Shown here: in pieces, positions 1,225-52,510 of the stretch | Position numbering within the stretch: position 1 is the first letter of the stretch | Layout of the letters: each line of letters opens with the position of its first letter | From: Mastigias papua | Taxonomy: Eukaryota; Cnidaria; Scyphozoa; Rhizostomeae; Mastigiidae | DNA length: 64,000 nucleotides | Direction of reading: 5' to 3' | Assembly: GCA_964019165.1 (NCBI GenBank) | Contig: OZ025287.1 | Location: 6,318,844-6,382,843 of the forward strand | Notes under the pieces: model-generated | The model's database searches: none | Told to the model about the DNA's origin: nothing | The model's input: only the letters and a program-made list of their open reading frames with translations | Made by a program: the position numbers and the translations under genes

Positions 1225-1248
1225 ACAAACACCTCTGTTAAGATAGAG

Positions 1249-2244
1249 TTGAGTGTACCACCACACCTCTCTTCAAAGTTAAGTGATGCTTCTCATTCTT
1301 TCATGGTGCCTCTGCACACAATGTCCTTAGTAAAAGGCATTCTTGATGGTCACATTAAGTTTAAAGGTAAAGGCATTATCTCTGCAAGAGATCTAGCTTC
1401 TCTTAATGGTGGTTATGCTGAGGCTGAAGAAAACCACCTGACAAATTTTGTGCTTGATGCTTACCTAGACCTTGTGAAAGCCAAACATAATGTAAGTGGT
1501 GTGACCTTATTTTCCTGGGAAATATTTGAAAAATTTGTCACAAAGAAGCTCCTTTCTGATGAAAACCTGCTCAAACAAGACATCATTCTTGTGCCATGTA
1601 ACACTGCACAAACTGAGCATTGGTTTCTTCTTGTAGTTCTACCACAGGAAAAGCTTATGACTGTGCTTGACAGCATGGCTAGTACATTTGTCAAGCCAGC
1701 TGCACAAGTAGCAGTGCAAAAAATGTGGAGGCTACTCCAAATGGTTGATAGAAGCCTTGATGTTAATCAGTGGCAGTTTTTTGCAAATCAAGCACGTGAT
1801 CTCCCCCAGCAGAGTAACTCATATGACTGTGGAGTGTTTGTTAGCTTTTATGCAAGGTGTTTGGTGGTCAATGATGCCATGCTTTGTCAACCAAGTATTC
1901 AACACTTTAGGAAACACATGATTGCGGAACTCCACAAGAAGACTTTGCTCACAATTTCACCAATTATCAGGGTTGGTGATTACTACGCTGTTGACTATGT
2001 CAGTATTTTTTACATAGGTAGAGCTCTTGAGTGTGGTGACAATCAATTCACAAGATTCAAATTCTTGCATAAATCTGGAGCAAAGAGGTTCGATTGGCCA
2101 AGGCGTGATGATGTTGATGAGAAGCACAGCACTTGTGTATTCTATGGGCCAGTAAGTTTACAGGGAAATGGCCCTTTTGAGATTGATGAGCTGGATGAAA
2201 TAGAAGCTGTTTTTAAAAATTACATTGCCAAAAAGGGTCACTAG
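1249..2244 (+). CDS. Ulp1/SENP-like C48 cysteine protease ORF of the same transposon
   Basis: The frame is open for 331 codons from TTG at 1249; the first in-frame ATG is at 1303. It shows the C48 (SUMO protease fold) catalytic set in order, counted from 1249: His124 in TEHWFLLVV, Asp141 in TVLDSM, Gln188 in LPQQSNSYDCG and Cys194 in YDCGVF. The fold cleaves isopeptide or peptide bonds after SUMO-like proteins; in transposons the substrate is unknown. The ORF is in the same frame as the upstream transposase. Only the TAA at 1222-1224 and eight codons lie between that stop and the TTG, so the two may be one protein interrupted by a nonsense mutation, or may be joined by readthrough. No splice pair that would remove the stop was obvious. 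All catalytic residues are present, so the protease part looks undecayed. Confidence 0.7.
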   Translation: MSVPPHLSSKLSDASHSFMVPLHTMSLVKGILDGHIKFKGKGIISARDLASLNGGYAEAEENHLTNFVLDAYLDLVKAKHNVSGVTLFSWEIFEKFVTKKLLSDENLLKQDIILVPCNTAQTEHWFLLVVLPQEKLMTVLDSMASTFVKPAAQVAVQKMWRLLQMVDRSLDVNQWQFFANQARDLPQQSNSYDCGVFVSFYARCLVVNDAMLCQPSIQHFRKHMIAELHKKTLLTISPIIRVGDYYAVDYVSIFYIGRALECGDNQFTRFKFLHKSGAKRFDWPRRDDVDEKHSTCVFYGPVSLQGNGPFEIDELDEIEAVFKNYIAKKGH

Positions 2245-28798: not shown

Positions 28799-31442
28799 CC
28801 ATGTCGAATAATGCATGTTTATTTATGTAGTTAGATGTAACTTTACTTGCCGATAGCTTGTAACGAATTGATAATGTTAAAGATGATAAAATATTACGTA
28901 TTATGAAACTCAAATTCTTCATTTCCATTTATATAGAGGCTTTTCATTTATGCTCTGTTTGACAAAATACTATACAGATTTGATCTACATTTGTACCTGT
29001 TGATATTTGTAAAAATGGAAGCAATGACCTACAGCTGATTTCATTTGAACAATTTTTACATGCATGTAAAGTACTCTGCTTCGAAGCAAGATAATTTTGT
29101 CCATGGTCTATAATATGCATTAATGGTCAGTACTTGAGAATGCTTTGTTTGTCTACAATAAATAAGATTTCTTCATGATTAACTTTATCCACCCTTTCTA
29201 CTTGGACTAGATCACTACTAAACAAGGCAGCATTTCCTGGGATACTTTAGCATAGTTGAACTACTGAGCGATTTCAGTATTAACGATAAAATGTATGGAA
29301 AGGCCTTTATTTCTCCATTAATCGACTTAATTTTTAAAAGTACGCCTTCCTCCAAGTTATTAGGGAGTTGTTTGCAAAAGAAGTGTTACGAGGCGAGCGG
29401 AAGACATTGTAGTTGGGCTTAAGGGAAAGTTTCATGCTGAGGTGTTGCATTGCCACTAAGTTTTGTGTAATAGAGTGGGCAGAGAGAAAAGTGATTTTGA
29501 ATATGATACGCATAACATTTGTTTACCAACTACTTGTGACATTTACATTGGTGTAAATTACGCCTATTTTGGCTACTTATTATGGTCACAAAGTTGCCAA
29601 TGAGAATCAATGATGCCCATTGGTTTGACCTAAAACAGGTCATCTGTTTACTAGTCAGGTCATGCAAGCTAAAAATTTAGCTTCCTGCACCAAGGGACAC
29701 AAGAAAATTGCTTTTTTGCAATTGTTAATAAAAATTGAGAACTTTAGCCTTCTTCCTCCAAAATTTCAATTTGCTTTACTTTGTGACTACTAAAAAAGTA
29801 TGAAATAAATTAGCTTTCATTCATCTTATTCATAGTCCCAACTCTCGTACTTGTCTGTGAATTTGCTGGTACTTTACCATGCATGATCAATTAGCGATGA
29901 CCTCTTGATCTTGTGTAATGATTCCTTCTTCGTTCTGACCACACGCAGTAAATATTTTCATCAATGCTTGCACCGGAATCGTAAAGTAGGCCATCCTCTC
30001 GCGCGAAAATGGAGGTAAGATTAAATGTTCTTTTGTCGCATATATAAAGGGATAAAATCTTACGTTCTATTCTAAATTTACCACTAGTTGGCTCTTGAAA
30101 CTTCAGTCGCAAATAGACACGACTATTCATAGGATACGATGAGTTGATGTTGTGATAAGCTGCATTACATCGAAATATGTTTCGTAAGTCGGCTCAGGCA
30201 CAAATCTAGGATAATTTCAACTTTCATTTTTTAAGACTTGTGTTTATGTCACCTATCAGGACAAAAATCAAGTAAGCTGTAAGACTTGTGGATCATTCAG
30301 TTAGGCATTACATTTTGTTGTGCTTGTTTTATAGTCTTTTTGACATAACCACTTTTTAAGAGAGTACACGGATGTTGCTGCATTACTGATGTGTGAAATC
30401 TTCCATCATTACAGTATTTATGGATGTACTGGTAATGCAGTCAACAAAAAAGATATATCTGCTCTTTACTTGCTTTGAGACTACTTAACAGATAGAATAG
30501 AAAATGGGGGTGAGAGGAATCCTAGCAGAGTAATCAATACTGAATACAAAATTGAAAATGGTATGGTCCTTACAACAGAACCGAAAAATGCAGTTTGTCG
30601 AAAATCTTATTTGAAAATGAACTATTATAGTCTCTAGGGAAAGAGCCTACATTAATCCTCTTCTCTGATATTAGCACTAAATAATAATGTAGATTCTGCT
30701 CCTCATATTCGAAGTTGTGAAGCAATATACTTGAACGATAATTTGACCCACGTTGTAGTGCAGGATTTTGAAAGAGTACTGGATATCTGCAAACAATATT
30801 CTGTTTCAATTGCTCTTTGGTTCCATGAATATTCAAGAGAGTTAAATCTGAAGCGAATTCAAGAAATCTTAGGAGCGAAGGTTACTTTAGAATTACACGA
30901 GAATCTTTGCACAAAACCAACAAGGAGGAATTGCTAAGACAGGCAAAGTCAGAATCTAATTGTAAATTCGTTAATAACAGAATTTTTCATTTGCGTAGGA
31001 CCTCTTTAAGTAGGATTTCTCATAACATGTTAGCAGAACATCTCATTTGTTAAGAGTAAGGACGGCATTGGGATAATTTTCTCGACATCTTACAAAATTC
31101 TGATATACGATTTATTCTCAAATCACAGATTGAAGCTCCTTCATCTATTTTATCGATTTGCCAAACGAGAATCGAAGAGAATGCTCGACAAGACAAGCCC
31201 GTATCTGCATATGAGTTTGTGCTCATGATCTTGTAGAAATATATCTGCATAGCCTTATTTAGTGCCTGGTTTAGTTCCCAGTTTGGTTTTGCTGAAAATA
31301 GATAGAATACAGTTTACATACTTTTTATAAACTCTTGAGTCCATTTTTATTTTCATGCCTGTTTTGGAGCATAAAGTATAACGTAGACATTTGCAAGCAG
31401 ATGTCAAAAACTTTAAAATGAAATTATTCCTCTAATTTGTAG
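28799..31442. other. Intergenic DNA and presumed 5' UTR/first intron of the SEA-minicollagen gene
   Basis: There is no recognised gene. An open plus-strand stretch ending at a TAG/TAA near 30937 (about 30665-30936, containing DFERVLDICKQYSVSIALWF) matches no family I know and may be a decayed element. The start codon of the following gene should be in a short exon here; several ATG-GT sites exist (for example near 29127 and 30559), but none can be chosen by eye. Confidence 0.35.
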
Positions 31443-34400
31443 GCCTTTCGAAGCCACATATTTCTAGCCCTAGTGGTGTTACTAGCGATTACATGTAAGT
31501 ACCTTCTATGTACTAAGGTAGAATTTATCTATCTGCCTTTTTCTCCTCTTCACATTTGCACGGATGTCTCAATGTGTGAAAAGCTAGCAGAATTTCCCTT
31601 AAGACGATGTTTGCGATTATCATTGGCGGACGTGAACAGTTAATGATGCTAGAATTATAAGACTCCAATATACTTTCAGTCCACTGGCTAATCAGCAAAA
31701 TCAAACAGAAATTTTGTCTGATTTATCAAAATTATTTTCTCGTTAAAAATGTATATTGCTCCATTCAAGAAGTGGCCAGTTGTACGATTCAAACAGATGC
31801 TAGCTCCATTTTCGAGCCTTTCTGTTGTTGGAATTAATCTCTTTAAGCCGTCTCCATTTGATTCTGAGTCTTATTTTGTTCATGCAGCAAAATTTTAGTC
31901 TTATGAAACACTAATTCTTCAAACAATCTACCATACTCTTCATATTTACTTGGCAACAATTTCAGCAGGGATATTAAAAGTTGACTACATATGATCTTTA
32001 TTAGTCATCACATTTTGGCCAGTATGCGTTGAAAAAATATATGTATATGTCGCTTAGCTGCAACTTCGAGCATGCAGTAAATCCTATTGGAACATTACTC
32101 TTGCGTAGTAGCTAATAGATTGGTAAACTATCCTACAATTACGGAAATGGAAACACCTTACATATTTGAATAAAGTGACTGTAAGTTTGTGTTTTCTCGT
32201 AAGATGCTGATGCTCAAAAACCAAAGCCAACAAAAAAGCCGACCACACCAAAAGTTACAACGCCAAAGCCAACAAAACCACCAACTCCCCCATCAGAAGG
32301 TAATTCTTTGCAATCAACAGTTATATACCTTGAAATAGACTGCTAATTGATAAAGAAATCTTTGATAAATGTTTGCTTAGTAAGTTAGTAAGTATAATTT
32401 GCTTTGACAGTTTCTGTGGTGGTAATCTATCAATTAGATCAAAAATGCATTCGTAATAACTGATAAGAAGTGTATTTGGAGTACAATGTACTCAAACTGG
32501 CAATAATGGAGGTTCTTTATGAAAATATACGTTAGCATATCGTTTATCCACAAACTGGTATCTAAAGCAACATTACTTGTGAAAAATGATGCATTTGGGA
32601 AAATTACTCAATATTCAATCGATACCTTACTGCTTATTCTAATAGAGGGTAATATTGAGCAATTTTGGTTTCAAGACATTTTTCTTAATAACACCAGCTA
32701 AGTTTATGGTATATGAAGGAGCACCTTTCTCTATACCTCACTCAGTTATTTCTTTTACCAGAGATAAGTCTTTCTTGATTTGGTTTGAGATGAAATCGAA
32801 TGCTTTGGTCATGTGGAAGAACATTATATTGTGGCACTTTATGAATGAATGACTGATATTTTCTTGTGAATAAGCTCAAGTTCAAAAGATAATTAATGTT
32901 ATGTCATACCCGTATTCTAAAAGGATCCAAATGAGTTGTGTCATTATGTATCGTTTAACTCCATGGTTCTATCCCACAATAAAATTTAGGAAAGGACTTC
33001 TATGTCACACTGAAGCTTCTTGGACAAGAATGCAGTGCCGACTTATCCAACGTTGCTAGTGGAAAGTTCCAAGAATTGAGGGGAAAATTGTACGATGCTG
33101 TAAGTTTCAAGAGTTATATACTGAATTCCCATCTCCTTAAATAAAATAAATTCGTATCTACGTTTCACGTGTCTATACCCATTATTAACTAAATTGCTAC
33201 TTAGTGCTAGTCCTATCATTGCTATCATTTTTTCTCTTATATTGTTCTGTTTTCTTCATGGCTTTAATGATATTGTATAGTGAGTTACTCACATGCATGG
33301 ACTATTGATGTTTAGTAACATTGCAGGGTTAGATTGTTAAACTGCTTGGTGTTGAATCTATGATGATTTGCTAGCAGTAATATTAATCAACGTGTTACAA
33401 AGCGACATTCAAATATATGTTAAATTAATATCTGTTACTCTTTAACTAATCTATGTATTTATTCCTTCAGACCCTTCAAATGTATGCTAACTACGACTAT
33501 TATCAAGATCTCCTGGTGTTGAGTTTCGAGTAAGTTATTTCACCAATATTATTCTACAAGTAATACTTTTTTCATTCTATTCAGATATCGAATCTTATGC
33601 AGTAAAGTTTCATAATCTTCAAAGTATAGCATTGAATACAGTACCATTGAATGAGAGCTCTGTTAATGTGCTATGAACTATGTACCTATATAACACCATG
33701 TGTCAAAGAAATTAGGAGAGCTATGGGGGGAAAGAGAATAGAAATGATGGTGGTTGGACAAAGAAGAAGAGGAAGACCAAAGCGGAGATAGAGAGATTGT
33801 ATAAGGAATGATATGGAGGTGATGGGGCTTAGAGAGAAGGGGTGCAAGAGAAGGAAAGATGTGGAGAAAAGCAATCCGCACCGGCGATCCCACATAGTTG
33901 GGAGTAAAGCCAGTAGAAGAAGAAGAAGAGGAATCTTTCTGATCTTTAAATCATGCCTGAAGTTAAATTACTCTTCATCCTACATTGCTGTAGGTTACTA
34001 GCTTACCAAAATTCACTTTAACAAAAATTTGGAATATATGGCGAGTCCGCTTTTCCTGTAGAGCCATGGATATCACTTATGGTAAATAATTATTTGAGTC
34101 TTAATTTACTTTGAGACTTGGTAATGACAAATCGTCTTCTTGCTATTTGCATTACTTTTTGTAAATACTAAAGGAACTGTAAAACAATGAAAATATAGGT
34201 GGTTGCTTGAATCGCAGGTGCACTGAAGGCGGCATTCTTGCACATTTTGCAATCCGATTTACAAAGAAGGCCAAAGGGCATATGAACATCTTCTCACAAG
34301 CAGTGCAAGCTGGTAAAATCGGTGAACTTGAAATTCAACCCAGTTACATCGAAGTCAGTAAGTAGAAAAATTATTCAACTGATCTAGCTATTATTTGATG

Positions 34401-35400
34401 TTACAAAATATCTAGATTTTACTTGACGAAAAGACAGAGTATCGTTATTTACTCAAGTGCATTTACAAGAGTTGCTTTCTTTACCTGTCTGCTATAACTG
34501 TTGAGTAAAAACCCAAAATAGAGAAGGTCGTAGAAAGATAGAAATTAAGACTTATGCACATGTGGCCTGCGAATCTTAATTTTTAAGCCTGGGAACTATA
34601 GACCTATTTATATTGTATTGCAATTAGGTGCACAAAGCATCATAAGATCGGTCATTTCCGTGAAAAAACGGAGTAAAATATAAAGAAGTGTTGATACTGT
34701 GATTGGCCAAAAATCTGCAAACTCAATATGGAAGATCAATGAATACAAATATGTGAAATTGAAGGAAAAATCTATATGAAAGACAAGTTAAATAAAAGGT
34801 CTTCTGCTTCAATTAACTCAGATGATCAGATGAAATCCCAGAATTACCAAGCAAATCTAATATGAAAGAAGAGTCAATCAACGAAAGTCAACTACACTAT
34901 CTATGCTACAATACCATTGGTATTGAGAATATCAGCATACCTTTCAATAGTAACATTTAAAATCAGATGAGTGTGGGAATTGTAGCAGAATGTTAAATGC
35001 ATGTAAAAGCTAAGTTATATGTAGTAGATTGTTTGCTGCAAGTTATTACATTTGAATTTCCTTTTTAGCTGATTTGGATCAAAATCTCCTGGTCGGAGGT
35101 GGTCCTGCTGGGGCAGGTTGTATGGGTGGATGTCCTCAAACATGTGCACCTGCTTGTGATGCTTCATGCTGTGGAGGAGATCAAGGGTCAGAGCAAACCA
35201 TTTATGTTCCTATTCCAATGGCACCAGCACCTCCTCCCCCAGCTGCTCCAGGCTGTGCAGTAGGATGTCCCTCAACCTGTGCCCCTGCCTGCACTCCAAC
35301 TTGCTGCTTCGTTCAGAAAAGATGGCTGGCAAAGAAAGCCAAGGCTCAAGCCAAAAGCAGGATTCATCAAAACAACAAATTTATGCGACCAAATTTTTAA
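31443..35400 (+). CDS. Secreted SEA-domain protein with two minicollagen-type cysteine-rich domains
   Basis: Exons: 31443-31494, 32204-32299, 32990-33099, 33471-33529, 34218-34357, 35069-35400; 262 residues, all GT/AG and in phase. An in-frame TAG directly precedes 31443, so the ATG must be in an earlier short exon. Order: hydrophobic signal peptide (HIFLALVVLLAITYADA, cleavage likely after residue 21); Lys/Pro/Thr-rich linker (22-49); SEA domain (about 51-152, with FYVTLKLLGQ, LRGKLYDATLQMYANY and ILAHFAIRFTKKAKGHM); cysteine-rich domain 1 (170-187, CMGGCPQTCAPACDASCC); spacer ending APAPPPPAAPG (188-214); cysteine-rich domain 2 (215-232, CAVGCPSTCAPACTPTCC); basic C-terminus. Both Cys domains have the exact minicollagen spacing, which in nematocyst walls crosslinks through disulfides. 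No Gly-X-Y repeat is present. At the SEA self-cleavage position the sequence is GGILAH rather than G-SVVV, so autoproteolysis is unlikely. Capsule localisation is inference. Confidence 0.88.
33706..33935 (+). pseudogene. 3' end of an RTE-like LINE inside the SEA-gene intron
   Basis: The plus strand reads RRRGRPKRR then RDCIRNDMEVMGLREKG and RSHIVGSKASRRRRR, the familiar C-terminal tail of RTE-type retrotransposon proteins (RGRPK..W.DCI..D). One internal stop replaces the expected Trp. It ends in an AGA-rich tract. Only the last 75 or so codons remain. Confidence 0.7.
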
Positions 35401-43939: not shown

Positions 43940-46900
43940 TCATATGAACAGGAGAGATAACACTACCAAGATTCCGTACACAAAGAGCAAAGCAACATCT
44001 CCGCCAAGCACTCCAACAATATTCGGTACACTATTTGGTACATAACTGGTTTTATTTGTACTGTTTGTTGCAAATGGATCATCCACATATAAGGGTCCTG
44101 TACAATTCGGACAGGAACCCAGAAATCTACAATACGTACCGGTGGCGCATGTCAAGGTGCAATTGCCACCAAGACATGACATCAATCCACTGGTTCTGTT
44201 ACTGAGCCTAACAATACATGATCCCCCATCGCAACGTCCCTCAATAGTGGTAGAGTGAACATCTATAAGGCAGCCTCTACCTTTGCATAGTGGTTGACAT
44301 AATCCCACAGCATCTCCATCGTCACAGGTAATTCTGCAGTTGTCTTTTGAACATGTGGGGTGGCAATTCGGTGCTTTACATGTCATATCCCTACAGTTCT
44401 CCTTGCATTCTTGGCTGCAATGGGGAGACTGAAAAACAAAAGTAATCATTTATATCAAAAAGATGAGACACTGAACAGAAAGGTCATATGATATCAGTGA
44501 AAAGAAAAGTAATGAGGTTTATATAAAAAACAATAGGCATAAAAATGTTGTCAAATCTCCTTCTGTATAGATGGGAAATTCAGTAGACAAAAAAGTAGCT
44601 TTGCTTACGTCTACTAACCCTCCAATATAGATAACGTTTGGGAATGAAGAGCTAGGGCATTATATATTGTGAAAAATGAAGGTAGCGCTAGAAGTGCACA
44701 ATAGCGTAAGGTAAGACTATCATGTAGCGGGTAAAGGAAACACTATCTTCTAGACTAATCAAGTAAGCCCGCAACTCCTCATAAATGAAAGGACAGGCAA
44801 CAACAACAGGTTATATCATGCATGTATATCAAATACTAGCGCAGATTAAAGGTTATGTACCTCGTAGTTCATAAGAGCATTTTTAAACCATGACTGGCGT
44901 TGTTTAAGAGTATTTCTCATAAAAAAGTAATATTGATTATCCTACATATTCCATTGTTAAGGAAAGTACTAAACTAAAATGAAATGGGATAATTTAAGTA
45001 CCGGGTATCTCAATTCGTAATTAGAGCAAACGCTATACTTTTTAAAAACTGTGCTATGTTGATGCGTTCAAGTAAAGGTTTATTGCAAGCTATAAAGTTC
45101 GTTTAGTGACTAATATGGATGGTGATACCAAATATGAGAGATAACATGCTTTAAATTTGATTGACTGATAGCAGCTAAACCGGATGAGTATCTCTTTGTT
45201 CTCGCTGTATTACCGGTTATGGGGTGGCGATGGAATTGATCATCAGGTTTTCTTTCCGTGCTCACTCCATCGATCTCATTCTACTGAACTACTTTATTTA
45301 TGATACTTTCATTTTAATAAAAGGCAAGTTAGTTTCATTTAACTACCAAAAATCTATATTTTTCAACAATTGATGAAGGTTGACGCAGTTCAAGAGTCCT
45401 CGTGTTTCCACAAAACTGCTCGATATGCATGAGAAGTCATTTGGGTCTTTTGTCAATATGCATAATGGCGGATTGAAAGCTGATAGTATGGGGAATAAAT
45501 TCAGAATTTTATGAAGTGCAGAACAGTTTACGCTTTTCTGTTAGGGATATCATTGATCAAGATAAGATCAAAACGTTAAATGACCAGCTGAAATAAGTGG
45601 AGCTCCAGGTTTTCAATCACCATGACAGCTTAGGCCATATGCTGAACAGCCATGTGCTCAAAATCTTGCTAAATATGGCGGCCTTTAGCTGCCAAGGGCT
45701 TAATATTTATTACTGACATAAGCCTGGTTCACACTTGTCGTAACTGGCGCAAGAGTCGGGGAAGTTTGCGACTTTCTTGCCTCTCACGTTTCTTGCATCG
45801 GTGTGTTCAAATTTGTCATGAAAGTAAGCGACCTACATGCTGCGCGCCAAATAAAGCTCAGAACGGGGGCAAAGAGCTTAATCAAGATGCTTAGTAACCA
45901 CGGGAAAATACACTGTAAATCAAACTGCCGTCTGTTTTGAATTTAAAGAGGTCGAGTGCACACATATTAGAGACGCCATATGCAAGATGAAGACATCAAA
46001 GGGCTCTGGAAATGACAATATCTCTAGCTACTTTTTAAAAATTTCCCGGCCATTCATTACCAAGTCACTATGTTGCATCTTTAATAAATCAATACTAAAA
46101 TGTGTCTTCCCTGCCCAATGGAAGATTGCAAGAGTCACTCCCATTTTTAAAGAAGGAGATAAAAACGCAAAAATCGAATTATAGACCAATATCAGTTCTC
46201 CCTGTAATATCGCGGCTCTTTGAAAAGTTAGTTTACAACCAACTATATGAATATATGAGCACAAATGGCCTCATAGCATCCTGTCAATCTGGTTTTAGGG
46301 CCCATCATTCTACAACAACAGCTCTGTTAAAATGTACTGATGATTGGCTAAATGGTATAGATGCTGGAAAATATGCAGGGGTCGTATTCGTAGACTTAAA
46401 GAAAGCCTTTGACAGAGTTGATCACGGAATTCTTCTTCAAAAGCTCGCACACTATGGTGTTCAGGGCCACGAGCTAGAGTAGTTTAAGTCATACCTGTCA
46501 AAGCGCACTCAGTTCACAAGAGTCAACGGCTGCGACTCCAGAGTCCAAAGTATAAGCCTAGGAGTACCTCAGGGTTCATGTCTTGGACCCCTGCTATTTT
46601 CAATCTACATCAATGATCTCCCTATGGTCATCGATAATGCTAAAGTTTATATGTACGCTGATGACACTTGTATAAGCTTCCAAGCTGATAGCGTTGCTAA
46701 GCTAAATGAGGGATTAAACAAGGACCTTGAAGCTTTGGATTCATGGCTCAGTGGTAATATACTGTCCCTGAACGTAGCCAAAACGCAGTCAATGACCATT
46801 TCAACAAAGCACAAGCAAGCTGCATTAGAAAAGAAAAATGAACAACTTTGTCTGCAAATGCGCAATGAAACCCTAGGAGCTGTTCAAAACGCCAAGTATC

Positions 46901-47711
46901 TAGGAGTTCACATTGATAATTCTCTTGACTGGAAGAAGCATATTCAGGAAACAACTAAAAAAATTTCACGATCTCTTGGTATGTTAAAATATGCAAAAAG
47001 ATATCTTCCTTTCCATGCGCTTAAAAATCTCTACACCAGTGTCATTGATCCTAGCTTCCGGTACTGTTGTTCTGTGTGGGGTGTGTGTGGTACAGCCGAA
47101 ATCCACCAGCTACAGAAACTTCAAAATCGAGCTGCCCGAATCATCACCGGTAGCAATTACGATGCCCCTAGTAAACCATTAATAGAAAGTTTGGGTTGGA
47201 AAACGATTAATGATATGATACAGTTTGAATCGCAAGTTATGGTATTCAAATCATTAAATCGGCTCACCCCACAATACCTCTCAGACCTGTTTGTGGCAAA
47301 CTCCACCAATCCCTCATACAACCTAAGGAGTACGGACACTGATCTTACGCTGCCAAAGAGGAACACCTCGACTGGCCAGAAAAGCTTTTCGTATAGGGGT
47401 GCTAAACTTTGGAATGGCCTCCCAGATCCATCAAAGCGAGCCTCTAGCCTGATCTCCTTCAAGACGTTGTTATAGTCACTTTATGTCATCTCAGTCATCT
47501 CCTTTATTTTATTCTATTTTGTTTCCTCTAACTAGTATTTTTAATTTTTCAAATAGAACATTATATGTACTTATTGTAATTAAGAAAGTTATGTAGGATT
47601 TTACTTATTGTAATTAAGTTATGTAGGATTTTATTCCTATTTTGTAGTATATTTAGATGGAGGGCCCCTTGAAAAGCAGCTACGGCTGAAGGGCTACCCT
47701 CCCTAAACATT

Positions 47712-50700: not shown

Positions 50701-52275
50701 AAAAGGATGAAGTTGGATGTAGTAGGTGTGAGGGAAGTTAGGTGGATAGGGTCTGGAAATTTAATTTCAGGTGGTTGATCATTTTATTATCCGGACTTAT
50801 TCTATGAACAGCTAAACAATGCTCGAAGTCAGTGTAGATCAGGAGAAGTAACCATAGTGATGGGAGATCTAAATGCTAAAGTGGGGAAGGTTGTAGTGGG
50901 AATGTGGTTGGCAGTGTTGGACTCTATGATCGGAATGCAAGAGGAGATAAATGGGTGGGATGGTGTGAAATGGTTTGCAATCCAAATTTGCTGCGTTGAG
51001 AGCCTTTTTTGATGACCGCATCGCTATATCCACTTCTGAACTAACTTGCGGCTAATAGCGTGATAAGGGTTTTGCTCCTAATTCCTTTATAAGCTAACAG
51101 AACTGTTATTCCTGGGCACAGGCGGATAACTGGGCCTGGCTATTGGAACGGTGCCTTGGTACACAGATTGCTTTGTTGTCGTTTTCTATTTTGCTGAACT
51201 ATGTTTAAAAAAATTGTTAATGCTTCTCGTAGCCAGAACTAGATGACTCTATGTCCATTTTAGCTACGAACGGCATAGAAAATTGTAAATTTATTATTGT
51301 GGTTTTTTCCAATGATAAAAAAACAGAACTGTTGCAAAGGTGGTTGATTTTCCCAATCCACAAACTTTGGGAGGTCATTTGTCATGAATATCGAATCACG
51401 TTTCGGTACTGTAGTCTGAGCATTTATCTGTATTTATTTAGATTCTACAAAAACGACCAAATGAAGCAAAGCGTATCGTCAGCATGAAAATGTTGGTGCG
51501 CAAGGAATGCAGATACTGGGCAAAGCCATTGATACATGACATATAAAGTGAAGGAAGGAGGTCTAAACGTGAAAATTGGAGAATATCACTTGCTATCTCC
51601 AAAACTACCGATTTATGTTGAATAGTGGTGGAAAATTGCTTTCTGGAGCTTAGGAATGACGCCATAACCCAGCACTTCGATAGATACTGACAGAAACTAT
51701 TGCTATAAAGATAACGTTGGGTGACTAAAATCAGCAACCAAGCTCCATTTTACATCAGTGTGGAATCATACTTGAAAAGCTATTTTGCGTCATTGATAGA
51801 ATATCAAACATGTGTACAATGCTAAACCTCATCTATTACAGTTGAAAAGATTCATCTGATGTAAAGATGTTGCTGAACTCAGCCGTCAAACCTATGTGTC
51901 TTTGATGTATAGAAGAAAATAGGGTACAATGTTACTACATTTTGAGGAACCAATTTTCATTGTTCAAATGGTCTTATCAGTCAACATAACTAAATCATCG
52001 AAAAGAGAGAACAAAGAACTTACTGAGCCTGAAATGGATGGAATATCACAAGATAGCTTTGTGCAGCCTCCATTGAAGCAAAACATGTTGCATCCCGTTG
52101 GAGAAGCACAAGACATTTGGCAGTTGCTTGTGTAGCATTTCTGTGTGCAAACTTGAGATGTATTACTACAGGTTTTCAGGTCACACGTATTTAATGTGCA
52201 ATTCTGAAGAATGTCAGCCTCAACTGAAAATAGTGATATTGCAATAATGTACAATACACTGAATGTAGCCGCCAT
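43940..52275 (-). CDS. Cysteine-rich, probably GPI-anchored cell-surface protein
   Basis: Two coding exons on the minus strand: 52275-52024 (84 codons) and 44428-43940 (162 codons plus stop), joined in phase 0 by GT/AG; 246 residues. A further CAG acceptor at 52284-52285 suggests an intron in the 5' UTR. Residues 1-20 are a signal peptide (MAATFSVLYIIAISLFSVEA). The mature part is packed with Cys (11 in exon 1) spaced mostly 3-5 residues apart, such as CYTSNCQMSC, CNMFCFNGGCTKLSC, CHPTCSKDNCRITC, CLGGNCTLTC. There are several N-glycosylation sites (NCT, NTS, NRT, NST, NKT). The C-terminus is a hydrophobic stretch (GDVALLFVYGILVVLSLLFI) with nothing after it, typical of a GPI attachment signal. 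I do not recognise the family; it is not Ly6 or EGF by spacing. The 7.6-kb intron is full of retroelements. Confidence 0.75.
45935..47712 (+). mobile_element. Nearly intact 5'-truncated LINE (L2/CR1-like) reverse transcriptase
   Basis: From 45938 the plus strand encodes an RT: EVECTHIRDAICKMKTSKGS (fingers), NYRPISVLPVISRLFEKLVY, VVFVDLKKAFDRVDHG (motif A), SLGVPQGSCLGPLLFSIYIN (motif B), VYMYADDTCISF (catalytic YADD, about 46650), AKYLGVHIDNSLDWKKH and YRGAKLWNGLPDP at the end (stop near 47475). It is damaged only by a one-base insertion in the A-run near 46170 and a TAG at 46480-46482 where the context predicts Trp. The endonuclease domain is missing. The 3' UTR has the GGAGGGCCCCTTG...GGGCTACCCTCC stem-loop and the copy ends in an (AAT)n tract. 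It sits in the intron of the Cys-rich gene, in the opposite orientation. Confidence 0.9.
47713..47775. repeat. (AAT)n microsatellite, LINE 3' tail
   Basis: About 20 ATA/AAT units, one interrupted by a C, immediately after the LINE 3' UTR. Such tails are commonly produced at LINE integration. Confidence 0.9.
48294..49320 (-). pseudogene. RTE-like LINE fragment with mutated active site
   Basis: Minus strand, from 49320 downward: LIKQLYEQQEAAVRTSHG, WFTIEQGVRQGCILSPHLFN and ISNLRYAYDVV, where the YxDD site has become YAYD. Then at 48874-48506 come LRTLITNNYDDTKEVPRRLC, KKRLLHTLAFSMASYGSGCW and ELWCFRRLLRINWTEKK. The GVRQGC...LSP block and SYGSGCW...FELWC tail separate it from the L2/CR1-like copies nearby. 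It lacks the endonuclease and is broken by several frame changes. Confidence 0.8.
49870..50010. repeat. Possible MITE end
   Basis: TAAGGCCCTGACTGCATGGG at about 49871, with CACCATAGGGCTG(G)AA repeated twice within 80 bases. The first bases resemble the terminal repeat of the element at 52511, but no matching opposite end was found. Confidence 0.3.
50408..50688 (+). pseudogene. LINE 3' end fragment
   Basis: The plus strand encodes RGAKMWNDLPAKTKQASSLA and VFKKLI-stop (50411-50493), then a 3' UTR with the stem-loop GTGGAGGGCCCCTTG...GGCTGAAGGGCAACTCTCC and AATTAAATGAAATGAAATG. It is clearly the same family as the copy ending at 47712. Confidence 0.8.
50689..50996 (+). pseudogene. RTE-like LINE endonuclease fragment
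   Basis: The plus strand reads KIEAKRMKLDVVGVREVRWI, then GSGNLISGG, and in a second frame FYEQLNNARSQCRSGEVTIV with MGDLNAKVG and GSVGLYDRNARGDKW. These are the AP-endonuclease motifs (SEVRW and GDxNAKVG) of RTE-type elements. It abuts the preceding LINE tail directly. Confidence 0.75.
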
Positions 52276-52510
52276 TTGATTACCTGAAAAATTCAAAGAA
52301 TTTCCAAAATAAGAGCGTTAAAAAGGAATCATAAAATATAATGCTGTTGTGACTTCTGATAAAGCTACAATATATTGACACTAATGTGGTGTAAAAAAGA
52401 ATTTAGCTGTCTAGAATCAATCAGTAGAGAAGAGTAGGATTAAACAATCGAATGTGATACACTTCTGTAAACAATAATATAAAATGGCCTAAATCAGGAA
52501 GTTCTCCTTA

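What the first reader, a model, noticed from the sequence alone, without database searches (positions are those of the whole stretch)
31443..35400. SEA domain fused to two minicollagen cysteine-rich domains
Two perfect CX3CX3CX3CX3CC domains, the wall-building disulfide units of nematocyst minicollagens, are encoded together with a SEA domain and a Pro/Thr linker, and without any Gly-X-Y collagen stretch. In classical minicollagens the two Cys domains flank a triple helix; here both lie together at the C-terminus, separated by a proline spacer, and the SEA domain takes the remaining space. It could be a capsule wall crosslinker or an adaptor joining glycan-rich matrix to the minicollagen network. 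I know of no described protein with this order, but could not search.
Basis: partly seen in the sequence, partly recalled or inferred. Interest (0 to 1): 0.88.

Follow-up and report, generated by a model that had tools for sequence, protein, structure and literature searches.

The report
SEA-domain relative of stinging-capsule protein CPP-1
This is a real, intact gene for a secreted cnidarian protein that most likely belongs with CPP-1, a known building block of the stinging-capsule wall; it pairs a SEA domain with crosslinking cysteine domains, a pairing already reported in another capsule-wall protein, NOWA.

Summary

The claim of an undescribed layout mostly fails. A relative, P0004, matches the published antibody peptide of Hydra CPP-1, a disulfide-linked capsule-wall protein, at 19 of 20 residues and fits its mass. 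NOWA, another capsule-wall protein, is in print with a SEA domain followed by C-terminal repeats. Named anemone and coral relatives, mostly labelled uncharacterized or SEA domain-containing, share the layout.

I file it as a probable new member of the CPP-1 family. Main doubt: the CPP-1 paper draws CRDs at both termini, whereas here and in P0004 a SEA region precedes CRD1; I could not see the Hydra sequence. What may be new is a SEA-CRD unit common to CPP-1 and NOWA.

The parts
30009..30014 (+). coding part of exon 1 (ATGGAG, Met-Glu), donor gtaaga
   Evidence: P0001 begins MEAFRSH, and its upstream read-through resembles the window just 5' of this ATG
31443..31494 (+). exon 2, hydrophobic core of the signal peptide (AFRSHIFLALVVLLAIT)
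   Evidence: no signal-peptide program was run
32204..32299 (+). exon 3, Lys/Pro/Thr-rich linker
32990..33099 (+). exon 4, first part of the SEA domain
33471..33529 (+). exon 5, middle part of the SEA domain
34218..34357 (+). exon 6, last part of the SEA domain; no G-S-hydrophobic self-cleavage motif
35069..35400 (+). exon 7, end of the SEA region, both CRDs, proline-rich spacer, basic tail with KR, stop TAA
35119..35172 (+). CRD1 CMGGCPQTCAPACDASCC, N-type by residues 4 and 14
35254..35307 (+). CRD2 CAVGCPSTCAPACTPTCC, N-type by residues 4 and 14
   Evidence: weak match to PDB 1zpx mini-collagen (E 0.49)

Best explanation
The gene encodes a probable member (perhaps the ortholog) of CPP-1, a structural protein of the nematocyst capsule wall, in what is probably a medusozoan. 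Inferred working: it is secreted into the growing capsule vesicle; its two N-type CRDs, held apart by a proline-rich spacer, each make one disulfide link to CRDs of other wall proteins as the wall hardens; the SEA domain, which lacks the usual self-cleavage motif, stays attached as a compact folded head on a Pro/Thr stalk and sets spacing or holds a partner. Shown here: gene structure, domain layout, SEA fold of the close homolog, a family with this layout in named anthozoans. From papers on Hydra CPP-1: wall location and disulfide integration. Inferred only: that this gene is CPP-1, the same location in this species, and any role for the SEA head.
Against: The CPP-1 paper says CPP-1 is flanked by terminal CRDs and calls the peptide the N-terminal CRD, but in P0004 CRD1 starts at residue 165 of 260 and CRD1-to-end is only 10.3 kDa; either the paper's drawing leaves out the region before CRD1 or Hydra CPP-1 differs. 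The window's own CRD1 matches the peptide at only 8 of 20 ungapped; CRD1 spacing is X5 or X4 in P0004-P0007 and X3 here, and P0008 has no six-Cys CRD1. The window's spacer has no run of 5 prolines, so it is hardly a rigid polyproline. Pfam SEA is under its cut-off for the window protein. The first AlphaFold run, with 8 sequences, reached only pLDDT 44. No expression or localisation data for this species.
Confidence: 0.8

Rival explanations
1. A NOWA offshoot rather than CPP-1: a protein made of the SEA-plus-CRD half of NOWA, without the CAP and lectin domains, working at the capsule wall.
For: NOWA of Craspedacusta, aligned with Hydra, Hydractinia, Clytia and Sarsia NOWA, is drawn as signal peptide, CAP, LectinC, SEA (321-420), then three C-terminal repeats (PMC11565402 figure legend). 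That NOWA repeats are minicollagen-type CRDs is stated in other papers.
Against: P0004's 19 of 20 match is to CPP-1. I had no NOWA sequence to compare; the search for CAP domains in the genome did not complete. This rival does not exclude the CPP-1 reading: both could share a SEA-CRD ancestor.
Confidence: 0.08
2. A paralogue that uses the same domains outside the capsule wall, for example in mucus, mesoglea or the tubule.
For: SEA domains are usual in mucins and matrix proteins (recalled). An Acropora SEA protein whose sequence I did not see (C014-E10) is expressed in scattered ectodermal cells, concentrated orally in the planula (PMC2629781, passages).
Against: Only the window locus matched the SEA part of P0001 in the own genome (5 of 9 matches; the other 4 cover only query residues 163-269); weak, because the search goes exon by exon and counts are lower bounds.
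Confidence: 0.08
3. One reading: an undescribed adaptor class joining a glycan matrix to the minicollagen network.
For: Architecture as stated; the word SEA occurs 0 times in the main text of the CPP-1 paper.
Against: CPP-1 link and SEA plus repeats in NOWA; no test of glycan binding.
Confidence: 0.03
4. Artefact: exons of two genes joined by eye.
For: Six introns of 371-1,428 bases and a Pfam score under the cut-off.
Against: Gap-free 94% match of P0001 through all six joins on a contig too short to hold the introns; same layout in 21 of 22 relatives.
Confidence: 0.01

Closest known systems
CPP-1, cnidarian proline-rich protein 1 (Hydra nematocyst capsule wall; PMC6910907)
   Same: Two N-type CRDs around a proline-rich linker, no collagen helix, mature mass about 26 kDa, homology through P0004
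   Different: Published drawing shows polyproline flanked by terminal CRDs and no SEA; the window has X3 spacing throughout CRD1 and a short, interrupted proline spacer
NOWA, nematocyst outer wall antigen (PMC11565402, PMC2687796)
   Same: SEA domain followed by C-terminal repeats; capsule wall
   Different: NOWA also has CAP and lectin domains before the SEA and is much longer (679 aa in Craspedacusta); none of these found here by Pfam
Minicollagens (PMC4863159)
   Same: CX3CX3CX3CX3CC CRDs and proline stretches
   Different: No Gly-X-Y helix; both CRDs lie after a SEA domain; KR is in the C-terminal tail
Cnidoin (PMC4321713, PMC6910907)
   Same: Non-collagen wall protein with CRDs
   Different: Silk-like elastic core, C-type CRD folds reported at its C-terminal end, no SEA described in the passages read
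MUC16 and transmembrane-protease SEA domains
   Different: No G-S-hydrophobic cleavage motif here; no transmembrane stretch apparent after the SEA; CRDs instead

Membership tests
CPP-1 | Two six-Cys CRDs around a proline-rich linker, no collagen helix | tested here: met
   the linker has no run of 5 prolines, so it is polyproline only loosely
CPP-1 | Both CRDs N-type | tested here: met
   sequence rule from PMC4863159 applied; not measured
CPP-1 | Mature mass about 26 kDa | tested here: met
   25.7 kDa from an assumed signal cleavage
CPP-1 | CRDs at both termini, as the paper describes CPP-1 | tested here: inconclusive
   CRD1 starts at residue 172 of 264 here and 165 of 260 in P0004; the paper's mass of 26 kDa suggests more sequence than its drawing shows (inference)
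CPP-1 | Full-length homology to Hydra CPP-1 | tested here: inconclusive
   Hydra sequence not available; homology is to P0004, which matches the published CPP-1 peptide at 19 of 20
CPP-1 | Located in the capsule wall, released only by reducing agent | not testable with these tools
   published for Hydra
NOWA | SEA domain followed by C-terminal repeats | tested here: met
   layout as in the legend of PMC11565402 Figure S5; sequences not compared
NOWA | CAP and lectin domains | tested here: not met
   Pfam finds only SEA in the window protein at E<=10
Minicollagen | Short Gly-X-Y collagen helix between the CRDs | tested here: not met
   no Gly-X-Y run of 5 or more
SEA-domain proteins | SEA fold | tested here: met
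   on homolog P0001; Pfam 24.1 bits is under the 26.4 cut-off
Self-cleaving SEA mucins | G-S-V-V-V-type cleavage site (recalled) | tested here: not met
   no G[ST][VIL][VIL] in the window protein or P0001-P0010

The most novel reading that the evidence does not exclude
CPP-1, so far drawn as two CRDs around polyproline, is throughout Cnidaria a SEA-CRD-proline-CRD protein, and it shares with NOWA an ancient SEA-CRD unit of the capsule wall, in which an uncleaved SEA head is displayed on the disulfide network and docks another capsule component such as the chondroitin matrix.
Probability: 0.35. Interest if true: 0.55.

Novelty: new member of a known kind. Interest (0 to 1): 0.38.

Why it matters
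It gives a probable identity to a set of cnidarian proteins now filed as uncharacterized, SEA domain-containing or even stoned-B, and points to a folded domain not mentioned in the main text of the CPP-1 paper, a protein used as a capsule-wall marker and as a biomaterial. Together with the SEA domain drawn in NOWA, it suggests that SEA plus cysteine domains is a recurring unit of the capsule wall, which makes the question of what the SEA head binds testable. The layout lies on both sides of the tree's main split, so it is probably ancestral to Cnidaria (inference; the window's side has no named species).

Tried and rejected
Rejected: artefact of exon joining; minicollagen membership; self-cleaving SEA. 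The first AlphaFold run (8 sequences) gave pLDDT 44 and is not used for the fold claim; the second (22 sequences) is. Both models are of P0001, not of the window's spliced protein. In the PDB sequence search the two best rows were ABC-transporter chains at E about 0.05, which I take as chance; the mini-collagen row had E 0.49.

Papers. Searches: 'minicollagen' + 'SEA domain' 1 paper; 'SEA domain' + 'nematocyst' 2; 'SEA domain' + 'cnidocyte' 0; 'SEA module' + 'nematocyst' 0; four terms including LOC116618868, at least 4 of 5 needed, 0; a wider one listed 20 of 89 papers, all 20 with 0 occurrences of 'SEA domain', the other 69 not seen. I opened passages of both papers: PMC2629781 is about Acropora genes, PMC11565402 reports a SEA domain in NOWA. 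None that I opened describes a SEA domain in CPP-1. Only open-licence papers are held and the 2012 Hydra nematocyst proteome is not, so I cannot say it is unpublished. PMC12549020 (passages) names four Nematostella 'minicollagen-like' proteins without giving sequences in the passages; LOC116618868 may be one of them. Passages only were seen of PMC4863159, PMC4321713, PMC10014300, PMC8191133, PMC2687796 and PMC6161364; of PMC6910907 passages and one section.

SEA near the CRD arrays: a profile of the family's SEA region, built locally, found the window gene's exons and L001 but nothing in L007-L019, which hold the three CRD arrays and 10 kb on each side. CAP and lectin domains there were not tested.

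Rows dropped: of 31 proteins returned, 22 went into A4 and the counts. Left out: P0016 (second Exaiptasia model lacking part of SEA), P0022 (Porites lobata model with a different start), P0025 (158 aa, no CRD), P0027, P0028, P0030 (frames of 146-190 aa with CRDs but no SEA in the Pfam column), P0026, P0029, P0031 (4, 4 and 5 exact CRDs, no SEA in the Pfam column).

Full report
What is there. The window (64 kb, 35.9% G+C) lies in a 346.8-Mb genome of 172 contigs, at C27:6318844-6382843. Two exact CX3CX3CX3CX3CC motifs occur in its six frames, both in the open frame 35056-35400; 0 occurred in 100 Markov windows. Exons 31443-31494, 32204-32299, 32990-33099, 33471-33529, 34218-34357 and 35069-35400 join at AG/GT sites with fitting phases. 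Homolog P0001 starts MEAFRSH, and the window has ATGGAG|gtaaga at 30009-30014, which supplies exon 1. The 264-aa product aligns with P0001 over all 264 residues, 247 identical, without a gap near any join. P0001's longest contig is 1,334 bases, far shorter than the 5.4 kb from start to stop here, so it must be a spliced or intronless copy.

Relatives. Three searches returned 31 different proteins. The named ones are Exaiptasia, Actinia tenebrosa, Nematostella (LOC116618868), Desmophyllum, Oculina, Porites lutea and lobata, and Pocillopora; Exaiptasia was looked up as an anemone, the others are anemones or stony corals from recall. Of the 22 used, 21 have two CRDs when spacing may vary slightly, 9 have two exact ones, 0 have a Gly-X-Y run, 22 have KR after the last CRD; 20 match Pfam SEA at E<=0.01. 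P0008 has no six-Cys CRD1. The tree puts the window with P0001-P0003 (97/96) and then with P0004-P0008 (100/100), split from 14 rows with all the named anthozoans; its root is drawn at the midpoint only, and P0024 is a long branch whose place is unsure. The window species is probably a medusozoan (inference).

What it is. PMC6910907 (passages and section 12) prints the Hydra CPP-1 CRD peptide used for its antibody. P0004 matches it at 19 of 20 residues; the window's own CRD1 matches at 8 of 20. P0004 from its assumed signal cleavage weighs 26.6 kDa; the paper gives 26 kDa for mature CPP-1. The paper reports that CPP-1 sits in the capsule wall, enters gels only after reduction, and has N-type CRDs at both termini. 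Against this, P0004 has 164 residues before CRD1, and from CRD1 to its end weighs only 10.3 kDa, so 'terminal' does not describe P0004; I think the drawing leaves out the first part, since 10 kDa would not fit the published mass, but only the Hydra sequence can tell. PMC10014300 (passages) also uses CPP1 as a wall marker.

NOWA. PMC11565402 (passages) draws Craspedacusta NOWA as signal peptide, CAP, LectinC, SEA at 321-420 and three C-terminal repeats, and marks SEA domains in its alignment of NOWA homologs. So a SEA domain followed by C-terminal repeats is already in print for a capsule-wall protein. Our protein is like the second half of NOWA. I had no NOWA sequence and could not test descent.

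How it may work. By the rule that V/I at residue 4 and P at 14 favour the C-type fold (PMC4863159, passages), both window CRDs are N-type, as are all 43 CRDs counted in the 22 relatives. N-type CRDs make single links; a GFP fusion with two of them formed polymers while one with a single N-type CRD did not. So a protein with two can bridge wall chains. That the SEA head sets spacing or binds a partner is conjecture.

Limits. In the own genome, 5 of 9 matches to P0001 fall on the window gene; the other 4 cover only query residues 163-269, three of them in CRD arrays, while L009 shows no exact CRD. I therefore saw one gene of this kind, but the search is exon by exon: the Pfam SEA search of the genome returned one place, L001, and missed the window gene itself, so paralogues could be missed too.

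Verdict. It is most likely a member of the CPP-1 family, not an undescribed class, and its SEA-plus-CRD pairing has a published parallel in NOWA. The useful new point is that the SEA domain runs through this whole family; the main text of the CPP-1 paper does not mention it.

Noticed in passing
L011 (G000:C27:9478500-9484500), minus strand; L012 (C27:2804500-2809500), plus strand; L013 (C3:1915000-1920000), minus strand: Single open frames with arrays of minicollagen-type CRDs separated by Pro or Met-Pro linkers and no Gly-X-Y: 15 exact CRDs in 754 aa, 6 in 403 aa, 4 in 319 aa, with basic ends. P0026, P0029 and P0031 (4, 4 and 5 exact CRDs) look alike. No SEA of this family within 10 kb of them. 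NOWA-like or a separate poly-CRD class.
   Followed up: partly
window 43940-44449 (-) and 51964-52317 (-): Two Cys-rich frames that look secreted, the first with a hydrophobic C-terminus as in GPI-anchored proteins; no Pfam match at E<=0.01.
   Followed up: partly
window 46483-47475 (+) and 1225-2244 (+): Reverse transcriptase (PF00078) and Ulp1-type protease (PF02902) frames, likely from mobile elements.
   Followed up: partly
L001 (G000:C18:3998799-3999083): The one place in the own genome that the Pfam SEA search returned: a frame with a GSVVV motif and a transmembrane-like stretch beside a Ser/Thr-rich frame, a mucin-like SEA gene of another kind.
   Followed up: partly
window 33651-34001 (+), in the intron between exons 5 and 6: Basic frames that resemble the tail of a LINE-type element; not tested.
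   Followed up: no
P0010, P0012, P0013, P0014, P0017, P0020, P0024: Anthozoan family members carry source names such as uncharacterized protein, SEA domain-containing protein and protein stoned-B, the last an evident mislabel.
   Followed up: partly
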